The notes under the pieces were generated by a model. That model was given only the letters and a program-made list of their open reading frames with translations. It had not been told where the DNA came from and did no database searches. This document shows, one piece after another, positions 716 through 8,169 of a stretch of 9,166 nucleotides of DNA. This DNA is from Flavobacterium psychrophilum (GTDB lineage: Bacteria > Bacteroidota > Bacteroidia > Flavobacteriales > Flavobacteriaceae): NCBI GenBank assembly GCA_003243255.1, contig QFQM01000180.1, positions 1 through 9,166 on the forward strand, read 5' to 3'. A program made the position numbers and the translations under genes. Position 1 is the stretch's first letter, and each line of letters starts with the position of its first letter.

Positions 716-735
716 CTGAAAATTGAGATTTTTAT
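716..735. other. Junction between eukaryotic and Bacteroidetes DNA
   Basis: Reading the minus strand, the lipid kinase ends with its natural C-terminus and a TAA stop at 732-734. The very next recognisable element is a nematode-type splice acceptor, CAATTTTCAG, whose AG is at 716-717. The transition therefore lies somewhere around 722-735. No transposon end, target-site duplication, tRNA or long repeat is visible at the join. The bacterial operon has no terminator before it, as expected if the original downstream DNA has been cut away. Confidence 0.8.
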
Positions 736-1610
736 ATGATTACTTTTAAAGCATTGGGAAGAACTGAAATATCAAGGCGTATTGTTTTGAATTTATGGTA
801 TTCACCATCAATCTGAACGTCCGGAAATATCTTATCAGGCAGTTCCAAATGAAGTTTGTCAGTTAAAAAATGTTGTGCCTTTTTAAACTTTTTAATCTTA
901 TTTTGTAATACGTAAAGTCCTAATACGATCTTTTCTCTAAAAGAGAGTTGAGGTATTATTACTAGATCAAGTAATCCGTCAGTTAAACTTGCTTTAGGAG
1001 TTAAACTCATGCCATAACCCATCTCGTTAGAATTTGAAATAAACAACATGAAGGGTAAATCGGCTATTAATCGGTTGGGCAATGAGATTAGTGTTTTAGA
1101 GGGCTTAAATTCCAGACTTGCTTTCAATGTAGATTTGATGTATGAAATAAGAGTCCGTTTTCCGGAATATTCGTAATTTTTGATTATTGCAGCATCAATA
1201 CCAATTCCGGTATTGCTGAAGAAATACTGATCGTTTATTTTTCCTACGTCAATAGCTGTGGTATTCCCGGTCTTAATTATATGTAAAGCTTTAGTTAGCT
1301 CTCTTGGAATCTGTAAATTGGATGCCAGTCCATTTCCTGAGCCAACAGGTACTATTCCAAGTGTAATGTTAGTACCAATAAGACATGATGCTACCTCATT
1401 TATAGTACCATCGCCGCCACAGGCAACAATAATATCAGGATTGGCCTCTATAGCTATTTTAGTAAGCTCTGTTGCGTGATTTTTATATTCGGTGTAATCT
1501 ACCTGAATAATATACTCATCAACAGGGAAAAAGTTTTTTATGTAAGATGTTGTGATTTGATGCTTACCCTTTCCTGAAATGGGATTTACTATAAAGTGTA
1601 TGTAGCACAT
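732..1610 (-). CDS. DgkB/YegS-type diacylglycerol (lipid) kinase
   Basis: The 292-residue protein has the normal length for soluble bacterial lipid kinases of the DAGK_cat family (DgkB, YegS, BmrU). These use ATP to phosphorylate diacylglycerol or related lipids at the inner face of the membrane. Visible motifs are the N-terminal VNPISGKGK, the nucleotide-binding ACGGDGTINEV (GGDGT at residues 65-69), PVGSGNGLA (88-95), GIGIDA (135-140), a TDGLLDLVII stretch (210-219) and the C-terminal QIDGE (266-270), all expected in an active enzyme. There is no membrane segment. The start ATG overlaps the stop of the upstream transferase by one base (TAATG), so the two are probably translated together. 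The likely job is recycling diacylglycerol released by that transferase into phosphatidic acid. A sphingoid-base or other lipid substrate cannot be excluded, since flavobacteria make sphingolipids. The stop lies within about 10 bases of the junction with foreign DNA, but the C-terminus looks complete. Confidence 0.88.
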   Translation of the reverse strand: MCYIHFIVNPISGKGKHQITTSYIKNFFPVDEYIIQVDYTEYKNHATELTKIAIEANPDIIVACGGDGTINEVASCLIGTNITLGIVPVGSGNGLASNLQIPRELTKALHIIKTGNTTAIDVGKINDQYFFSNTGIGIDAAIIKNYEYSGKRTLISYIKSTLKASLEFKPSKTLISLPNRLIADLPFMLFISNSNEMGYGMSLTPKASLTDGLLDLVIIPQLSFREKIVLGLYVLQNKIKKFKKAQHFLTDKLHLELPDKIFPDVQIDGEYHKFKTIRLDISVLPNALKVII

Positions 1611-3568
1611 TACTTTAAAAGTTTATTAGTAAACAAATAATCAGCGGTTTGGTACCATGCAATAGTTTCATCCAGAAAGGATTGTTCCATCGGCAATGTT
1701 TTCAGGCTGTTGTTATTTTTGTTCCAGGTATAAAAAGCCTGTTTTTTCTGATCTGATAATATCATTACTTTATCCTGTTTCATCAGTACCAGCTTCCTGT
1801 ATGTGCCCATTAAAGACCTTTCTTCAAATTTGTTGTCTAACACATTTCTACCAAAGAAATCCGAATCGTAATTCCAATGCATAAGTGAGAACAGGGTAGG
1901 GAACAGGTCTATTTGCGAACATTGTTTGGTAATCTTCTGGTTTGAAGTTTCCGGCAGGTTAACTATAAATGCCGGAATGTGATAATTAGCTACATCAATT
2001 TCATCTTTTCCGGCACTACGGGCACAATGGTCGGCTATGATAACAAACACTGTGTTTTTATACCACGGTTTGGTTTTGGCTTTTTTGAATAATTCTCTGA
2101 GCGCAAAATCGGTATATTTTACAGCTCCCTGGCGGTTTTTACCCGATGGGATATCAATTTTACCTGAAGGATATGTATAGGGCCTGTGGTTGGATGTAGT
2201 CATGATGAAGTTAAAGAACGGTTGTTTGTTTTGGTATTGCTTATCAGCTACTTTAAGCATTTTGTTAAAGATGTCCTCATCACAAATACCCCAGGCATTT
2301 TCAAAAGTTACTTCACTATCATCGATATTATTTCGGGTGGTTTTGATCTTATCGCTTAATACGCTCCCTCTGCCGCGGTCATAGATTGAAAACCCATTTC
2401 CCCCAAAATAGGAATTCATATTGTCAAAATAACCATCGCCACCGTAAAAGAAATTACAGTCATAGCCTTTCATCTTGAATACACTGTTTACAGTATACAG
2501 ATTTGAATTTTCAGGCCGTTTTACAATACTCTGACCGGGCGTGGGAGGTATGCATAGTGTGACAGCCTCCATTCCTCTTACGGTTCTGGTTCCCGTTGCA
2601 TACAGGTTTTCAAAAAAGACGCTTTTCTGAGCAAGGCTGTCAAGAAAAGGAGTAATGTTCTCATCATTCCCAAACTCTTTCATAAAGCTGCCGCTAAGGC
2701 TTTCTACAAGAATGAAAACAACATTTTTCTTTTCATTGTTAGCGATAGTGTCGGTAATATTTCTGTGTATCGAAAAGCCTTTGCCGGTAAATTGAGAATT
2801 GTCACTCTTTAATTTATCCCGGATAAGGCCAAAGGCTTTTTTGTTATCAATAGAAGTATAGAATTCAGTATATTCCATCTGGTTATTTCTAAAGGCAGCA
2901 AAAAAGGAATATACCCCGTTTTTTGATATTTCAGAATTGTAACGGTTTGATGACCATTCCGCATCATTATTGGTTACAAATACTGTATAGAGAATCGCTA
3001 TTACAACAGCTGTTGTCAAAAAAGTAATTCTTTCTTTGATAGAAGACTTCGCGGTGAAAGTTTCGGCAAAAGCTTTTCTTTTTATAAAGATGAATAATAC
3101 AGCTATCGTTAGCAAAAGCACACCGCCTATCAAAACAGGTAGCGGATAGGACTGGTTGATATTCGCAACAACCTCATGCGTGTAAATAAGATAATCTACA
3201 GCGATGAAATTAAAACGGGTTTTAAATTCGTCCCAAAAGGTCAACTCCGCAAAAAAGGTGAATACCAATATAAAAATCGTTAGACTGGTAAAGAACCATA
3301 CCAATGCTTTATCTGCAAAAGAACCAATCCATCTGTCAGGAAATACAGCATAATATAGTATAGCAGGAAGGCTAATGAATGTTACTGTCCCAAGATCAAA
3401 AAACAATCCTGTTATGAGTGTACGTATCAGGCTTATTATATTCCATGAAATTTCATCATATTGCCACACATAAAATATTATGCGTAATAGCTGCGATACG
3501 ATCAGAAACCAAAAAATGAAATGTAATAACAGGCTAAATCTTCCTGTTAATTGAAACTTCTTAAACAT
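1610..3568 (-). CDS. LTA synthase/MdoB-type membrane sulfatase-fold transferase
   Basis: The 652-residue protein has about five N-terminal membrane helices (near residues 10-36, 45-72, 85-110, 142-163 and 181-200) and a large extracytoplasmic alkaline-phosphatase/sulfatase-fold domain from about 280 to 575. Likely metal and catalytic residues are Glu289 in FILVESLSG, Thr329 (or Thr327) in ATGTRTVRG as nucleophile, His461 in SNHRPY, and Asp513-His514 in IIADHCARS. Family members (COG1368: LtaS, OpgB/MdoB) move glycerol phosphate, and relatives move phosphoethanolamine, from phospholipids to surface glycans, leaving diacylglycerol. A Gram-negative flavobacterium has no lipoteichoic acid, so the acceptor is probably lipid A, a periplasmic glycan or a capsule sugar; this is inference. 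No Shine-Dalgarno is seen. A palindrome sits directly before the ATG and a copy of the shared operator lies 34-55 bases upstream. It is coupled to the lipid kinase downstream. Confidence 0.87.
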   Translation of the reverse strand: MFKKFQLTGRFSLLLHFIFWFLIVSQLLRIIFYVWQYDEISWNIISLIRTLITGLFFDLGTVTFISLPAILYYAVFPDRWIGSFADKALVWFFTSLTIFILVFTFFAELTFWDEFKTRFNFIAVDYLIYTHEVVANINQSYPLPVLIGGVLLLTIAVLFIFIKRKAFAETFTAKSSIKERITFLTTAVVIAILYTVFVTNNDAEWSSNRYNSEISKNGVYSFFAAFRNNQMEYTEFYTSIDNKKAFGLIRDKLKSDNSQFTGKGFSIHRNITDTIANNEKKNVVFILVESLSGSFMKEFGNDENITPFLDSLAQKSVFFENLYATGTRTVRGMEAVTLCIPPTPGQSIVKRPENSNLYTVNSVFKMKGYDCNFFYGGDGYFDNMNSYFGGNGFSIYDRGRGSVLSDKIKTTRNNIDDSEVTFENAWGICDEDIFNKMLKVADKQYQNKQPFFNFIMTTSNHRPYTYPSGKIDIPSGKNRQGAVKYTDFALRELFKKAKTKPWYKNTVFVIIADHCARSAGKDEIDVANYHIPAFIVNLPETSNQKITKQCSQIDLFPTLFSLMHWNYDSDFFGRNVLDNKFEERSLMGTYRKLVLMKQDKVMILSDQKKQAFYTWNKNNNSLKTLPMEQSFLDETIAWYQTADYLFTNKLLK

Positions 3569-3569
3569 A

Positions 3570-3587
3570 CTGACTAATTTTAGTCAG
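3570..3587. repeat. Near-perfect 18-base palindrome next to the transferase start codon
   Basis: The arms CTGACTAA (3570-3577) and TTAGTCAG (3580-3587) are exact reverse complements around a 2-base centre. The repeat begins one base upstream of the transferase ATG (3566-3568, minus strand) and touches the AACTTGC element at 3587-3593. If transcription starts just after that element, part of the palindrome is in the short 5' leader. It could be a repressor operator or, with a 4-base loop, a 7-bp RNA hairpin that hides the start region. No T-run follows, so it does not look like a terminator. Confidence 0.6.
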
Positions 3588-3623
3588 CAAGTTTCAGTTG
3601 CAATTTTGAATTAAATTTGAATT
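3587..3623 (-). promoter_or_regulatory. Shared operator/promoter element, copy before the transferase-kinase pair
   Basis: The box at 3602-3623 reads on the minus strand as AATTCAAATTTA followed by an ATTCAAAATT block. It is identical at 20 of 22 positions to the box before the response regulator. Exactly 8 bases later comes AACTTGC (3587-3593), the same heptamer at the same distance as in that copy. The box contains tandem TTTGAATT units at 11-base spacing on the plus strand, as expected for an OmpR-family dimer binding one face of the helix. AACTTGC would take the place of the -7 element (consensus TAnnTTTG), with the box covering the -33 region, an activator geometry. It gives the transferase and kinase their own start site although they lie downstream of the receptor. 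Confidence 0.65.
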
Positions 3624-3633
3624 CTTCCGCCCT

Positions 3634-6060
3634 TTAAAATTTATAGCTATATCCAAAACGTATAACCTGTGTTTCATAATAATCCTTGCTCGTGTAACTG
3701 AAGCCATTTCCGTTAACTTCTTTTTTTATAACAAGAGTATTTAAAAGGTCAGTAGCATTAAGGAATAATTCGCCTTTTCCGTTTTGGATTGTCTTTTTTA
3801 TTCCGGCATCAATAGAGAAACGAGCATCAATTTTTCCTTGTGGGATGATATCCGGTGCAAGGTAAGTAGCCATTAACTGCCCTGTGAAAGTCTTGGTGAA
3901 ATTAAAAGTGTTATTCCATTTTACATTGCCGGAAGTTATATCATGTTTCGTATCAGTAAATGTGGTGGGTTGTGGATATAAGATGTTTACTGTAAAGGCA
4001 TCAATTGTATTATGATATATAGTAGCATTCAGGTTGTATGAATACCACGAGAAAGGTTTTTGTGAAAATACCATTTCCATACCGGACATAGAGCTTTTAC
4101 CTGCGTTTTCAAAAACATTATAAATAAGAGTACTTCCCGGAACTGTAGTTGCTATCCTTGTAATGGTTCCATCTACAAACTTTTGATATAATGATGCGAA
4201 CAGATATCCTTTACCAATAGTGGTCTTATAACCAAGCTCTATTGAATTGGTAAACTGTGGGCGTAACCCCGGATTACCAACCTTAATAATTTCTGCATCG
4301 TCATATTTCGGGAATATGCGAATGTCAACTTCATTTGGCCTGTCTATTCTTCTGTTATAGAATAAAGACAGTTTGTTGTTGTCATTGATCTTATAAGCAA
4401 ATCTTAGGGTAGGGAACGGCTGAAAGTAGCTGTAACCGTCGCTTTTGTATGTTGGATGATTTGGATTTACTTCATACTCCAAATCCATGTATTCTAATCT
4501 CAAACCGACCTCTGCCTCAATTTTATTGCTTTCAAAAATATAGTTTCCATATAATGCAGGTATAGCTTCTTCATAGGTAGCCCTTCCTCCGGCATTCACA
4601 TCGATAGGTGAATTAAGTCCTGGGTAGAATTGCATATTTGTTGGAATAATCCTGTTCCTGAATTTGAATCCTGTTTCCAGGCGTCCAAATTTTAAGGGTT
4701 TTATATAATCAACATTCATGTCAAATACACTTTCATCTGAAAGTAATTTGAAAGCATCTTTTCCTGTAAATGTTGGCATTATATTATCAAAAAAATATTT
4801 TTCATTTTCCCTGTGAAAAGTATAGTTCAGTCCCGCATTCAATACATGACCGGCTTCTTTAAATTTATGCTGATAGGATGCTGAGGTCATGATTGTAGTT
4901 TTTAGCTCATCTTCTAAAAATTGCCATAAGCGTAAACGTTGCGAATAATCAGCATTAAAAAAGGGCTCATCCCCATGATCGATTATCTTTTCACTACCAT
5001 ACAATGCAGAAAACGCAAAGGTATTACGCTCATTATAATTCCAGTCAATACCGGTTTTCAGGGTTGTAAAATGTGTATTCCTGTTTCTTTTGGTTTGTTG
5101 ATTTATAATCGTGCCATCGTCATAAGTACGGGAAACAAATTCATTTTTATTAAGTGTCTCGGTATATAGATAATCCCCCTGAAAGTAAACATTGATCTTT
5201 TCCTTCCTGTAATTAAGCGATAATGATGGATTGATCTTTGGAGTTAGCTGATATTGTGGCCTGATGGTAGGCAGGTTTTCTTTTCGCTGCCACAAGGCTC
5301 CATATCCTGATGATAGGCCGACTTTACCGTTCAGTCCTTCTTCTTTATTCTTTTTGTAGACGATATTGATGATACCGGCATTTCCATTGGCATCATACTT
5401 CGCCGAAGGGTTATTTATGATCTCTATTTTTTCAATTGCCGAAGCAGGGATATTATCTAATCCCGACTGACCATTGAATCCTGTTAGTGCTGTTTGTTTT
5501 CCATCTATGAGTACCATTACTTTGTCATTGCCTCTCAGTTGCAATTTGCCATCCTGGCTGGTTACTCCCGGCAGGTTTTGCATAGCCTGCAATACCGATC
5601 CCCCACTTTGGGTAATGTTATCGCTCAAGGCAAAGGTTTTTTTGTCCATTTTGTTGTTTATCTCATCCTGTGTGGCATCAATCACAACTTCGTTAAGCTG
5701 TTGTGCGTCTTCTGAAAGGATAATTTCGCCGATGGTTATGAATTCTGAAAGTGAGCCTACAAAGAGTTTCTGTTTTACAGTTTTGTAACCAATGGAGCTA
5801 ATCTCTAAAATGTAATTTCCGGGATGAATGTTGTCAATCGTAAAATAACCTTCCTCATTAGTAACTGTTCCGCCTTTTAGTACATCTTCTTTCGATTTTA
5901 TAATTACGTTAGCGTAGGGCAGAGAGCTTTTAGATAAGCTATCGTTCACGGTTCCCGATATAGTAACTGTTTTTGTTTGTGCTGTACCAGTTAGTGCTAA
6001 TAAACTTATTACGATTATTAGAATTCTGTTTAGATGTGGTATGGTTTTTTGGAAATTCAC
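3634..6060 (-). CDS. TonB-dependent receptor-like outer-membrane beta-barrel protein
   Basis: The 808-residue protein starts with a signal peptide (hydrophobic core IIVISLLALTG, cleavage probably near TAQT at residues 25-30). A carboxypeptidase-regulatory-like beta-sandwich follows (about 31-115; TISGTVND, GYFTIDNIHPGNY), typical of Bacteroidetes receptors. A segment LNEVVIDA near 122-129 fits a TonB-box region. The plug domain (about 135-235) shows LQAMQNLPGV, QLRGNDKVMVLIDG and ASAIEKIEIINNPSAKYDANG. The rest is a barrel of the OMP_b-brl_3 kind, ending VIRFGYSYKF with the terminal aromatic recognised by the Bam machinery. Such proteins import siderophores, metals or organic ligands, or act in signalling; this subfamily's substrate is not known to me. 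It follows the histidine kinase gene by 60 bases with its own copy of the shared operator, so it is a likely direct target of that two-component system. No SusD partner is present, which argues against a polysaccharide-utilisation locus. Confidence 0.88.
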   Translation of the reverse strand: MNFQKTIPHLNRILIIVISLLALTGTAQTKTVTISGTVNDSLSKSSLPYANVIIKSKEDVLKGGTVTNEEGYFTIDNIHPGNYILEISSIGYKTVKQKLFVGSLSEFITIGEIILSEDAQQLNEVVIDATQDEINNKMDKKTFALSDNITQSGGSVLQAMQNLPGVTSQDGKLQLRGNDKVMVLIDGKQTALTGFNGQSGLDNIPASAIEKIEIINNPSAKYDANGNAGIINIVYKKNKEEGLNGKVGLSSGYGALWQRKENLPTIRPQYQLTPKINPSLSLNYRKEKINVYFQGDYLYTETLNKNEFVSRTYDDGTIINQQTKRNRNTHFTTLKTGIDWNYNERNTFAFSALYGSEKIIDHGDEPFFNADYSQRLRLWQFLEDELKTTIMTSASYQHKFKEAGHVLNAGLNYTFHRENEKYFFDNIMPTFTGKDAFKLLSDESVFDMNVDYIKPLKFGRLETGFKFRNRIIPTNMQFYPGLNSPIDVNAGGRATYEEAIPALYGNYIFESNKIEAEVGLRLEYMDLEYEVNPNHPTYKSDGYSYFQPFPTLRFAYKINDNNKLSLFYNRRIDRPNEVDIRIFPKYDDAEIIKVGNPGLRPQFTNSIELGYKTTIGKGYLFASLYQKFVDGTITRIATTVPGSTLIYNVFENAGKSSMSGMEMVFSQKPFSWYSYNLNATIYHNTIDAFTVNILYPQPTTFTDTKHDITSGNVKWNNTFNFTKTFTGQLMATYLAPDIIPQGKIDARFSIDAGIKKTIQNGKGELFLNATDLLNTLVIKKEVNGNGFSYTSKDYYETQVIRFGYSYKF

Positions 6061-6084
6061 GGCAACTTATTTTAAATTATATAA

Positions 6085-6120
6085 CAAAGTTGCGACGTGA
6101 ATTGGGAGGAAATCTGAATT
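6085..6120 (-). promoter_or_regulatory. Shared operator/promoter element, copy before the outer-membrane receptor
   Basis: On the minus strand the box begins AATTCAGATTTC, identical over 12 bases to the response-regulator copy. After a 5-base variable stretch it continues AATTCA, and exactly 8 bases after the AATT comes AACTTTG (6085-6091), followed by TTATATAA. The first half is one base closer than in the other two copies. The element fills the gap between the kinase stop (6121-6123) and the receptor start (6060), 25-60 bases upstream of the ATG. CAACTTTG differs from the Bacteroidetes -7 consensus TAnnTTTG at one position. Confidence 0.65.
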
Positions 6121-7386
6121 TTAGAATTTTACAGTAAAATGATGCAGATTTTCTGAAAAACTATATGATATATCCCAATTGTTGAGTTCTGTAATTTTTT
6201 TGATGATAGCTAAGCCCAGGCCATTACCCTGAGCAGATGGATCGGCTTTAGAAAAACGGTTGAACAACTTTTCAGAATTTAATGGGGTTTGTTGGCCGGT
6301 ATTTGAAAATGTAATTGAAGCAGGCGTAGTCGCTACGATTATTCTCCCACTTTTTACATTATGCCTGATGGCATTCAGAAACAGGTTGTTGATCAATACT
6401 TCTGTTAAGACTGAGTTTGATTGTATAGATATATTAATATCAAGCTCTGTAGTCACTGATATGCTTTTCGCTTTTGCCTGTTCGGTAAAAAAGTCAAGAT
6501 GCCTGTTTATATATTCATTAAGCACTATGGGCTGTTTTTCAAAATAGCTGTCATTGTCAATTTTTGAAAGCAGCAACAGATTTTTATTGAGTCGATTAAG
6601 CCTTGAAACATCATTGTTTAAGGAGCCAAGCAGTTGCGATTGTTCTTTACTCAGATCAGATTGTGCGAGTGTGTCTATTTTTGTCTGAAACAAGGCTAAT
6701 GGTGTTTGTAATTCATGGGCCGCATTTTCTACAAATTCCCTTTGGCTTTTGTATATAGCGGTATTCTTTTCGATTAGCCGTTCCAGACTTTTGTTAAGGC
6801 GGTCAAATTCATCTATGTCAGTAGGAGTGAAGTGAGGAGGTTTATTCTTGTCTATTTCAAAATTGTGTATCTGATTCAGTGTATCATAGAAAGGCTTCCA
6901 GATTTTTGCGGCAGAGGATTTCGATATCCATATTATACCCACAAGAAGAATTATTATGATAACAAGGAACATCACAGCTATACTGAACACCATACCTTCC
7001 ATTTCTACAAGGTTGGTTTTTTCAACATAAGTATACCTTTTCCCATTTATATCAACAGGAGCATATAACAAGCGAAATGGTTCTTTCTCATTAGCAATAG
7101 AATCAAACAGCATTTTACCGACAATAGAATCTTTTGTTACGCCCATGTCAGGCACAATTTCTACATCACGATTGTATTTGTTCCAGTTGGCTATATCTTT
7201 TTCGGTATACTCTTTATGGCTTTCTTTTACAAAAGCTCCTTTATGAAAAAGTAATACTTCATCGGTTTCATAAATGTAAAGCCATTGGCTTATGAAATAA
7301 AAAATCGGTGCAGCTATCAATAGAATGATAACCGCATAGGCCAAAAAGCTATTAGTAGTCTTATTTAGAAGCTTTTTATTATTCAT
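6121..7386 (-). CDS. Sensor histidine kinase of a two-component system
   Basis: The 421-residue inner-membrane kinase has two membrane helices (about 14-35 and 132-155). They bound a periplasmic sensor loop of roughly 95 residues rich in Asp and Glu, of no family I recognise. HisKA follows with the phosphoacceptor His224 in NAAHELQTPL, then HATPase_c with the N box (NNLFLNAIRH, 333-342), a reduced G1 box (SNTGQ, 361-365, lacking the usual Asp of DxG but common in Bacteroidetes kinases), the F box (LFNRF, 374-378) and the G2 box (GNGLGLAI, 387-394). The linker at 156-205 shows no clear HAMP signature. Its start overlaps the response-regulator stop by 8 bases, so the two are one unit. The acidic loop beside a metal efflux pump suggests sensing of cations or cationic peptides, but this is inference. 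Confidence 0.92.
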   Translation of the reverse strand: MNNKKLLNKTTNSFLAYAVIILLIAAPIFYFISQWLYIYETDEVLLFHKGAFVKESHKEYTEKDIANWNKYNRDVEIVPDMGVTKDSIVGKMLFDSIANEKEPFRLLYAPVDINGKRYTYVEKTNLVEMEGMVFSIAVMFLVIIIILLVGIIWISKSSAAKIWKPFYDTLNQIHNFEIDKNKPPHFTPTDIDEFDRLNKSLERLIEKNTAIYKSQREFVENAAHELQTPLALFQTKIDTLAQSDLSKEQSQLLGSLNNDVSRLNRLNKNLLLLSKIDNDSYFEKQPIVLNEYINRHLDFFTEQAKAKSISVTTELDINISIQSNSVLTEVLINNLFLNAIRHNVKSGRIIVATTPASITFSNTGQQTPLNSEKLFNRFSKADPSAQGNGLGLAIIKKITELNNWDISYSFSENLHHFTVKF

Positions 7387-8056
7387 TTTGCCATTTATAG
7401 CCTAAGCCGTAAATTGTTTTTATGTAATCGCCACTTCCTGCTTTGGTCAGTTTCTTTTTCAGGTTTTTTATATGGGCGTATATAAAATCATGGTTGTCTA
7501 GCATATCGGCCATATCACCTGATAAATGTTCTGCAATAGCACCCTTTGAGAGTACTTTGTTTTCGTTTCCTATAAGATAAAGTAAAAGGTCTATTTCTTT
7601 TCTTGTAAGGTCAACAGACTTATCGTTTACATATACTGTTCTTGCAAAGATATCTATGCTTATTTCGTTGAAAGATACAATATTATTGCCTTTAAAATTC
7701 TTGCGCCTTATAAGTGCCTGCATCCTTACCAACAGTTCAGATAAATGAAAGGGTTTGGTAAGATAGTCATCTGCGCCAAGGTTAAAACCTTCTATGCGGG
7801 TATCCAGTGTTTCTTTTGCAGAAATAATAATAACGCCTTCCATTTTGTTTTTGGACTTTAATTCTTTCAGCAAATCAAACCCGTCTCCATCGGGTAGCAT
7901 AAGGTCTAACAGGATGCAATCATAGTCATACATGCTTATCTTATCGAAAGCATCTCTGTAATTTTCGGCTGTTTCGCAATGCACACCATTAGGTTTAAAA
8001 TAATCTCTAATGCTTTGTGCAATTTCAGTCTCGTCTTCAACAATCAGGATTTTCAT
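7379..8056 (-). CDS. OmpR/PhoB-family response regulator
   Basis: The 225-residue protein starts MKILIVEDE. An upstream in-frame TTG would add five residues (MLTCN) but is rejected because MKILIV is the canonical first beta strand. The receiver domain (1-115) has the acidic pair Glu7-Asp8, phosphoacceptor Asp51 in LLDLMLPDGDG, the Ser79 position in IIISAKE and the conserved Lys101 in LTKPF. The C-terminal winged helix (about 125-225) shows DLTRKEIDLLLYL and ends with IKTIYGLGYKW, the usual wing of DNA-binding OmpR-type proteins. It is co-translated with the kinase downstream. The box immediately upstream of its start is repeated before two other units, so it is the natural candidate to bind all three and to regulate itself. 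Confidence 0.94.
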   Translation of the reverse strand: MKILIVEDETEIAQSIRDYFKPNGVHCETAENYRDAFDKISMYDYDCILLDLMLPDGDGFDLLKELKSKNKMEGVIIISAKETLDTRIEGFNLGADDYLTKPFHLSELLVRMQALIRRKNFKGNNIVSFNEISIDIFARTVYVNDKSVDLTRKEIDLLLYLIGNENKVLSKGAIAEHLSGDMADMLDNHDFIYAHIKNLKKKLTKAGSGDYIKTIYGLGYKWQNE

Positions 8057-8059
8057 ATT

Positions 8060-8096
8060 GCAAGTTAGCAAATGAATTTTGAATGAAATCTGAATT
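8060..8096 (-). promoter_or_regulatory. Shared operator/promoter element, copy before the response regulator
   Basis: On the minus strand the box (8075-8096) begins AATTCAGATTTC and continues ATTCAAAATT. Eight bases later comes AACTTGC (8060-8066; TAACTTGC with the preceding base). The ATG of the response regulator is only 3 bases further (8054-8056). If AACTTGC is the -7 element, transcription would start at or next to the ATG and the mRNA would be leaderless. Another candidate promoter further upstream, TTTG (8128-8131) with TATTATTG (8104-8111) after 16 bases, would place the box inside the leader instead. The box also lies 42 bases before the -33 of the divergent metal-efflux promoter and could serve both directions. 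Confidence 0.6.
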
Positions 8097-8138: not shown

Positions 8139-8169
8139 TTGTATATTTTTACAGGCTGTCATAACTTTG
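8139..8169 (+). promoter_or_regulatory. Bacteroidetes-type promoter for the metal-efflux genes
   Basis: TAACTTTG at 8162-8169 is an exact match to the Bacteroidetes -7 consensus TAnnTTTG. ATTG with TTG at 8139-8141 lies 20 bases before it, an acceptable -33 element. Transcription should start around 8174-8178, which falls on the GTG start codon of the next gene. The -33 element is divergent from the response-regulator operon, 42 bases past its operator box. Confidence 0.72.

What the first reader, a model, noticed from the sequence alone, without database searches (positions are those of the whole stretch)
3587..8096. The same operator/promoter element before three units: a predicted two-component regulon
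Boxes at 8075-8096, 6100-6120 and 3602-3623 (all read on the minus strand) share AATTCA-ATTT and a second AATT block. Each is followed after exactly 8 bases by AACTT(G/T)(C/G), near the start of the response regulator, the receptor and the transferase. Copies 8075 and 3602 agree at 20 of 22 positions in non-coding DNA over 4 kb apart. Equal spacing to a -7-like element suggests activation by the encoded OmpR-type regulator, including of itself.
Basis: seen in the sequence. Interest (0 to 1): 0.82.

Follow-up and report, generated by a model that had tools for sequence, protein, structure and literature searches.

The report
Conserved envelope-remodelling two-component regulon in Flavobacterium
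Three copies of a short DNA switch sit before a bacterial regulator gene and before the membrane genes beside it, and the same switch recurs before the same genes in dozens of related bacteria, so it is very probably where that regulator binds to turn on itself and a set of cell-envelope genes.

Summary
The three boxes are real, non-coding and not chance. Boxes 8075 and 3602 are the window's only 22-mer pair matching at 20 or more positions (shuffles average 0.05). A relatives-trained matrix scores the three sites 30.0, 28.8 and 21.6; nothing unrelated exceeds 2. In 56 loci the box precedes all 41 neighbouring response-regulator (RR) orthologues, 32 of 32 receptors (3 through a PepSY-like gene) and 46 of 56 LTA-synthase-like genes. 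Box identity is 0.77-0.83 against 0.28-0.44 upstream. It is an 11-bp direct repeat with a -7-like TTG at fixed distance, as for a PhoB/PmrA-type activator. Among 60 distinct RRs, 42 of 42 at 65% identity or more carry it and 0 of 18 at 64% or less, though RRs at 60-61% in other genomes do. Further targets include PAP2, diacylglycerol kinase, PepSY-like and DUF347 genes. Best reading: an autoregulated OmpR-type system controlling envelope lipid remodelling, working like PmrAB or ColRS but a member of neither. The RR mRNA is predicted leaderless. No binding or expression data exist here. A new regulon of a known kind.

The parts
8075..8096 (-). Operator box 1 before the response regulator: AATTCAGATTTCATTCAAAATT
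   Evidence: PWM 30.0 bits; conserved before 41 of 41 RR orthologues in the 56 loci
8060..8067 (-). -7-like element TAACTTGC of the RR promoter; predicted transcript start at about 8056, the A of ATG (leaderless)
   Evidence: 4 bases between G and ATG in 31 of 34 RR sites, 5 in 3; -7 consensus position from PMC9723704
7379..8056 (-). OmpR/PhoB-type response regulator
   Evidence: Response_reg + Trans_reg_C; best PDB sequence matches 1kgs (DNA binding response regulator D), then BasR
6121..7386 (-). Sensor histidine kinase, overlaps RR by 8 bases; matches NCBIfam PorY family above cut-off
   Evidence: HisKA + HATPase_c; NF052314 446 bits, cut-off 350
6099..6120 (-). Operator box 2 before the receptor, directly after the HK stop codon
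   Evidence: PWM 21.6 bits; before 29 of 32 receptors directly and before PepSY-receptor pairs in the other 3
6085..6092 (-). -7-like element CAACTTTG; predicted start at about 6080
3634..6060 (-). TonB-dependent-receptor-like outer membrane protein (CarboxypepD_reg, plug, OMP_b-brl_3)
3602..3623 (-). Operator box 3 before the LTA-synthase-like transferase: AATTCAAATTTAATTCAAAATT
   Evidence: PWM 28.8 bits; before LTA or its operon in 46 of 56 loci
3587..3594 (-). -7-like element AAACTTGC; predicted start at about 3583
1610..3568 (-). LTA-synthase-like phosphotransferase (sulfatase fold)
   Evidence: PF00884; PDB 3lxq and LtaS2 sequence matches; below the NCBIfam cut-offs of phosphoglycerol transferase I and LtaS
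732..1610 (-). YegS/DgkB-like diacylglycerol kinase, start overlaps the LTA stop by one base
   Evidence: DAGK_cat, TIGR00147 144.9 bits over cut-off 118.65; directly after LTA in 36 of 56 loci

Best explanation
The boxes are operators of the response regulator encoded at 8056-7379. Phosphorylated by the neighbouring histidine kinase, the regulator binds as a head-to-tail dimer to two TTCA half-sites 11 bp apart. The site spans about -40 to -19, where the -33 element would lie, and recruits RNA polymerase to promoters with a poor -7 box. It thereby activates its own operon (RR-HK), the outer-membrane receptor, and the LTA-synthase-like transferase with its diacylglycerol kinase. In relatives the same regulator also drives PAP2 phosphatases and PepSY-like and DUF347 proteins. 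Together the enzymes would move phospholipid-derived head groups onto an envelope acceptor, recycle the diacylglycerol released, and adjust lipid phosphates: a remodelling response like PmrAB or ColRS. Shown here: the sequence, its conservation, repeat geometry and co-occurrence with the regulator. Inferred: binding, direction of control, substrate and signal.
For: Box scores at orthologous promoters fall above 17 or below 9 with one exception at 12.1. Box 0.77-0.83 pairwise identity against 0.28-0.44 upstream. 11-bp self-match 0.492, next best offset 0.222. 42 of 42 close RRs with the box and 0 of 18 distant ones, with a near-constant recognition-helix region in the 42. Genus scan: 15 hits against 0 in the reversed control, 121 genomes, 14 of 15 before set members; 9 of the 15 lie outside loci already held, 8 of these 9 before set members. 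Order scan: 16 hits against 2, 395 genomes, 11 of 16 before set members (10 of the 15 not already held), including RRs at 60-61% identity. LTA paralogues away from the TCS lack the box although their genomes have the RR at 81-82% (L002, L012, L043, L053). The divergent hypothetical/CzcA unit has its own TTG...TAACTTTG promoter and no box reading its way.
Against: No biochemical or expression data. L023 keeps the LTA box though its draft genome has no RR closer than 43%. L109 and L110 (64% and 58% RRs) lack the box in their own promoters although their recognition-helix regions differ little from the others, while RRs at 60-61% in other genomes have it (L136, L137). In L027-L030, L033 and L049 the RR box lies 130-139 nt upstream, not at the class-II position. 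Five of 16 order-level hits precede unrelated or no clear genes. In one search, 7 of 19 hits with 0-1 mismatch lie outside the known set. The strict pattern is insensitive, so regulon size is unknown. The 56 loci include near-identical relatives, so locus counts are not independent.
Confidence: 0.85

Rival explanations
1. The encoded RR binds the boxes but mainly represses these promoters, so the genes rise when the kinase is off.
For: A site over the -33 region could block polymerase (position).
Against: TTG within the box is rare (2 of 28 RR, 2 of 25 receptor, 0 of 27 LTA sites) and -7 boxes are imperfect, so the promoters look activator-dependent. A repressor needs no fixed phase with the -7, yet the spacing is 35-37 wherever a TTG was found (71 of 80 sites).
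Confidence: 0.12
2. The box is read by another regulator, or is an extended promoter of an alternative sigma factor, and only happens to sit near this TCS.
For: L023 has the LTA box without a close RR. F. psychrophilum has a TAnnTTGY promoter class (SM5), and several -7 elements here fit it.
Against: A 22-bp direct repeat is not a usual sigma -35 element (recalled). The -7 varies between sigma-A-like and SM5-like at orthologous sites while the box stays. Box presence largely follows RR identity.
Confidence: 0.08
3. Chance similarity in A+T-rich intergenic DNA.
For: A site as good as box 2 arose in 1 of 300 shuffles of the window.
Against: Conservation and control counts.
Confidence: 0.01

Closest known systems
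ColRS of Pseudomonas putida (PMC2689224, passages read)
   Same: OmpR-subfamily regulator on imperfect direct repeats; activates a PAP2 phosphatase gene (PP0900) and a diacylglycerol kinase gene (PP1636); membrane-related regulon
   Different: Published ColR core (T/C)(T/C)NA(C/G)NN(T/C)TTTTT(C/G)AC is not this box; no LTA-synthase-like gene or TonB-dependent receptor was seen among the targets in the passages read; different phylum
PmrAB/BasRS (polymyxin-response system)
   Same: RR aligns full length with BasR; recalled: direct-repeat PmrA box and head-group transferase (EptA) targets
   Different: RR 157 bits against PmrA cut-off 330; the transferase's PDB matches are 3lxq and LtaS-type enzymes; extra receptor and PepSY targets
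PorXY of Porphyromonas gingivalis
   Same: HK passes the NCBIfam PorY-family cut-off
   Different: This HK lies beside an OmpR-type RR; porX and porY lie at separate loci and PorX has a CheY-like domain and, in the F. johnsoniae homologue, phosphodiesterase activity (PMC10951265 passages)
PhoPR of Riemerella anatipestifer (PMC9603813 passages)
   Same: Flavobacteriia TCS with a mapped, autoregulatory motif and many membrane targets
   Different: Most conserved nucleotides TTTAACA, ArcA-like; not this repeat

Membership tests
OmpR/PhoB-family two-component system | RR with receiver and winged-helix domains beside a HisKA/HATPase kinase | tested here: met
OmpR/PhoB-family two-component system | Direct-repeat operator with about 10-11 bp period | tested here: met
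   offset 11 scores 0.492, next best 0.222
OmpR/PhoB-family two-component system | RR binds the repeat when phosphorylated | not testable with these tools
   needs footprint or shift assay
PmrAB/BasRS | RR passes the curated PmrA model | tested here: not met
   157.4 bits, cut-off 330
PmrAB/BasRS | Induction by polymyxin, Fe3+ or acid and lipid A head-group modification | not testable with these tools
   -
ColRS | ColR core binding consensus | tested here: not met
   published core compared by eye with the three boxes, both strands
ColRS | PAP2 and diacylglycerol kinase genes in the regulon | tested here: met
   PAP2 boxes in relatives; DGK after LTA and with its own box in L126; resemblance of function only, not membership; this DGK is of the YegS/DgkB type
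PorY-family kinase | NF052314 score above cut-off | tested here: met
   446 bits in the window, 418-439 in three relatives, cut-off 350
PorY-family kinase | Works with PorX on type IX secretion | not testable with these tools
   own adjacent OmpR-type RR; 5 of 10 genomes searched have a match over cut-off

The most novel reading that the evidence does not exclude
The PorY-type sensor kinases of Bacteroidota are at root sensors of envelope lipid or LPS state that drive this OmpR-type remodelling regulon, and the PorY-PorX type IX link in Porphyromonas is a rewiring of it. The master RR would be made from a leaderless mRNA, so its translation is tied to a distinct mode of initiation.
Probability: 0.12. 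Interest if true: 0.65.

Novelty: new member of a known kind. Interest (0 to 1): 0.45.

Why it matters
Few transcription-factor regulons are defined in Flavobacteriia (recalled). This one has a precise, testable operator with a fixed place relative to the unusual Bacteroidota -7 box, a coherent envelope-lipid gene set, and an RR mRNA predicted to be leaderless. It offers a model for class-II-like activation at TAnnTTTG promoters and a candidate envelope-stress or antimicrobial-peptide response system in a group with little known of either.

Tried and rejected
Chance similarity: rejected. Box as a shared operator for the divergent hypothetical/CzcA unit: not supported; that unit has its own TTG-20 bp-TAACTTTG promoter, and of the 56 loci only L011 shows the arrangement, so it cannot be tested by conservation. 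Box as an inverted repeat: the best palindromic score (0.321) is below the 11-bp direct repeat (0.492). A coevolution paper with an OmpR-family mutation in F. johnsoniae (PMC10197871, passages) could not be tied to this RR. A paper linking P. gingivalis lipid A 1-phosphatase (PAP2) activity to type IX secretion (PMC12704123, passages) did not mention PorY and was not used as evidence. Whole-genome search of the window's own assembly was impossible (none held).

Literature: seven paper search listings. None of the listed titles and abstract starts describes this operator or regulon; that claim covers only those searches of the open library.

Dropped before counts: RR or gene matches under 60% identity or starting past query residue 30, sites 60 nt or more from the gene and sequences 65% or more identical upstream to one already kept (25 of 36, 10 of 30 and 16 of 38 kept for RR, receptor and LTA, window included), RRs with under 60 bases of upstream sequence, or identical in both their last 60 upstream bases and the helix, repeated 45-base sites.

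Mended: one receptor score (L054, 12.1) lies between the two modes; 2 of the 53 training sites of the matrix are weak (12.1 and 8.5 bits); 6 of the 15 genus hits and 1 of the 16 order hits lie in loci already held.
Full report
What is there. The window carries, on the minus strand, an OmpR/PhoB-type response regulator (RR, 8056-7379), a histidine kinase (HK, 7386-6121), a TonB-dependent-receptor-like outer membrane protein (6060-3634), an LTA-synthase-like phosphotransferase (3568-1610) and a YegS/DgkB-like diacylglycerol kinase (1610-732). Divergent from the RR are a hypothetical gene and a CusA/CzcA gene cut by the window end. No whole genome is held for the window. A scan of genome contigs with the LTA protein gave 56 loci, all titled Flavobacterium, Flavobacteriaceae or Flavobacteria.

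3602 and 8075 are the only 22-mer pair in the window with 20 or more matches (one diagonal; 20 dinucleotide shuffles average 0.05). A matrix trained on 53 distinct relatives' sites, none from the window and two of them weak (12.1 and 8.5 bits), scores the boxes 30.0 (8075-8096), 28.8 (3602-3623) and 21.6 (6099-6120). The only other window value above 2 is a shifted overlap of box 3 (10.3). In 300 shuffles of the window the best score averages 5.6 and reached 21.6 once.

Conservation. In the 56 loci, 41 have an RR orthologue nearby. All 41 carry the box upstream: 35 at 17-19 nt from the start codon and six (L027-L030, L033, L049) at 130-139 nt. Of 32 receptor orthologues 29 have it directly; in the other three (L005, L044, L054) it precedes a PepSY-like gene that precedes the receptor. 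Of 56 LTA genes, 37 have the box 30-41 nt upstream, four have it 155-173 nt upstream, five have it before a PepSY-like gene that precedes LTA, and ten have none. All 41 loci with a neighbouring RR are among the 46 with a box; the other five are L022, L023, L025, L035 and L048. Best scores per promoter lie above 17 or below 9, except one at 12.1 (L054 receptor, whose box is before PepSY). The loci include near-identical relatives, so these counts are not independent; after thinning by upstream identity, mean pairwise identity is 0.82 (25 RR sites), 0.77 (10 receptor) and 0.83 (16 LTA) in the box against 0.28-0.44 in the 66 bases upstream.

Architecture. The matrix matches itself best at an offset of 11 bp (0.492; next 0.222 at 7; best palindrome 0.321), so the box is a direct repeat TTCArnWTT / TTCArAAT. 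The last G of a TTG lies 36 bases from the box start in all three window copies; among distinct sites it lies at 35-37 in 26 of 28 RR, 22 of 25 receptor (all 36) and 23 of 27 LTA sites, the rest having no TTG in the range searched. In F. psychrophilum the -7 box TAnnTTTG lies at -12 to -5, and a variant class SM5 has TAnnTTGY (PMC9723704; passages and part of one section read). By that yardstick the box spans about -40 to -19, in place of a -33 element, and TTG inside the box is rare (2 of 28, 2 of 25, 0 of 27). This is the layout of PhoB- or PmrA-type activation (recalled). In the RR promoter there are 4 bases between that G and the start codon in 31 of 34 sites and 5 in 3, which puts the predicted transcript start on or within a base or two of the A of ATG. 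The RR mRNA is therefore predicted to be leaderless, a class that makes up 5.5% of the F. psychrophilum mRNAs with mapped starts.

The box follows the regulator, with exceptions. For the 15 loci without a nearby RR, whole genomes were searched for it. Among the 24 RR loci returned, the seven at 72-82% identity all carry the box 17-18 nt upstream and the 17 at 64% or less do not. Pooling the loci held at that time gives 60 distinct RRs: 42 of 42 at 65% or more with the box and 0 of 18 at 64% or less (best score 13.7). The 42 share a nearly constant recognition-helix region, DMLD(N/S)HDF(I/V)YAHIKN(L/M)KKK. L109 (64%) and L110 (58%) have nearly the same helix region yet no box in their own promoters (L110 has one after its HK), and RRs at 60-61% in other genomes do have the box (L136, L137), so identity is a guide and not a rule. 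Six genomes have no RR above 44% (L023, L038, L039, L040, L042, L050); the LTA box is absent in five and present in L023, which I cannot explain. Genomes with the RR at 81-82% but with this LTA gene elsewhere lack the box at that gene in L002, L012, L043 and L053, while L022 and L025 (RR 81% and 78%) and L048 (64%) have it.

Genome-wide targets. With up to 2 mismatches in four genomes (of loci already held) the forward-plus-reverse hits were 41, 27, 8 and 13 against 17, 13, 3 and 2 for the reversed control; of 19 hits with 0-1 mismatch, 12 lie at RR, receptor, LTA or PAP2 genes and 7 do not. A strict pattern with the TTTG gave 15 hits in 11 of 121 genus genomes and no control hit. The targets are RR 5, LTA 3, receptor 1, PepSY-like 4 (one by eye), YncE-like 1 (a family added to the set from L005) and unknown 1. 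In 395 order-level genomes the pattern gave 16 hits in 14 genomes against 2 control hits. Eleven of 16 (one, L097, already held) precede RR, LTA or LTA-like, DGK, PAP2, DUF347, PepSY-like (one by eye) or weakly similar receptor genes (25-26%). Five do not (L128, L130, L131, L135, L140), though L130 lies just after an LTA homologue. The pattern is insensitive: it finds one of the known sites in G001. Extra boxes in the fetched loci precede PAP2 phosphatases, PepSY-like, Omp85, DUF347 and YncE-like proteins.

What it probably does. The LTA protein aligns with PDB 3lxq (Vibrio VP1736, uncharacterized) and more weakly with LtaS2; the Thr and metal-ligand motifs appear kept by eye (residue roles recalled). 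It is below the NCBIfam cut-offs of the named transferases, so its substrate is open. Enzymes of this class release diacylglycerol from phospholipid (recalled), and the kinase that would recycle it starts within a base of the LTA stop in the window and directly after LTA in 36 of 56 loci. PAP2 phosphatases in the same regulon point to lipid or lipid A phosphates. The closest functional parallel is ColRS of P. putida, where ColR activates PAP2 and DgkA genes (PMC2689224, passages), and PmrAB (recalled). It is a member of neither: the PmrA model is not met (157 against 330 bits) and the ColR core consensus is absent by eye. The kinase passes the PorY-family model (446 against 350; three relatives 418-439). 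In G074 a PorY-family kinase also lies directly beside another OmpR-type RR, so the label should not be read as proof of a T9SS role.

Verdict. What is missing is any biochemical or expression evidence. It is a new regulon of a known kind, with a coherent envelope theme and a neat leaderless-RR prediction.

Noticed in passing
window 1-about 600: The left end carries a cytochrome P450 exon-like frame (548-366, minus; Pfam p450 1.6e-9) and an ORF (1-438) without Pfam match; by eye it looks eukaryotic and suggests a chimeric contig joined between about 590 and 732.
   Followed up: no
window 8056-8067: Predicted leaderless mRNA of the RR; the G-to-ATG distance is 4 bases in 31 of 34 RR sites and, by eye, also in L095, L136 and L137.
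   Followed up: partly
window 3571-3586: Perfect inverted repeat TGACTAA-TT-TTAGTCA between the predicted LTA transcript start and its ATG; not evident by eye in the relatives printed.
   Followed up: no
L026, L034, L055 about 9824-10001: Box and -7 followed by about 90 nt and a terminator-like hairpin before LTA, where other loci have a PepSY-like gene: possible small RNA or remnant.
   Followed up: no
L035 143-175 and L037 8401-8433: Two boxes offset by 11 bp, i.e. three half-sites in a row, before an Omp85-family gene.
   Followed up: no
L115, L124, L125: A different, distant RR (34-38% identity) lies beside LTA homologues of 39-41% identity without this box: a second TCS-LTA association.
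   Followed up: no
window 8139-8169: Divergent hypothetical/CzcA unit has a canonical-looking TTG...TAACTTTG promoter and no box reading its way.
   Followed up: partly
L141, L142 and window HK: PorY-family kinases in Flavobacterium occur beside OmpR-type regulators (seen for the window's own and for G074); G003 has two family members above cut-off.
   Followed up: partly
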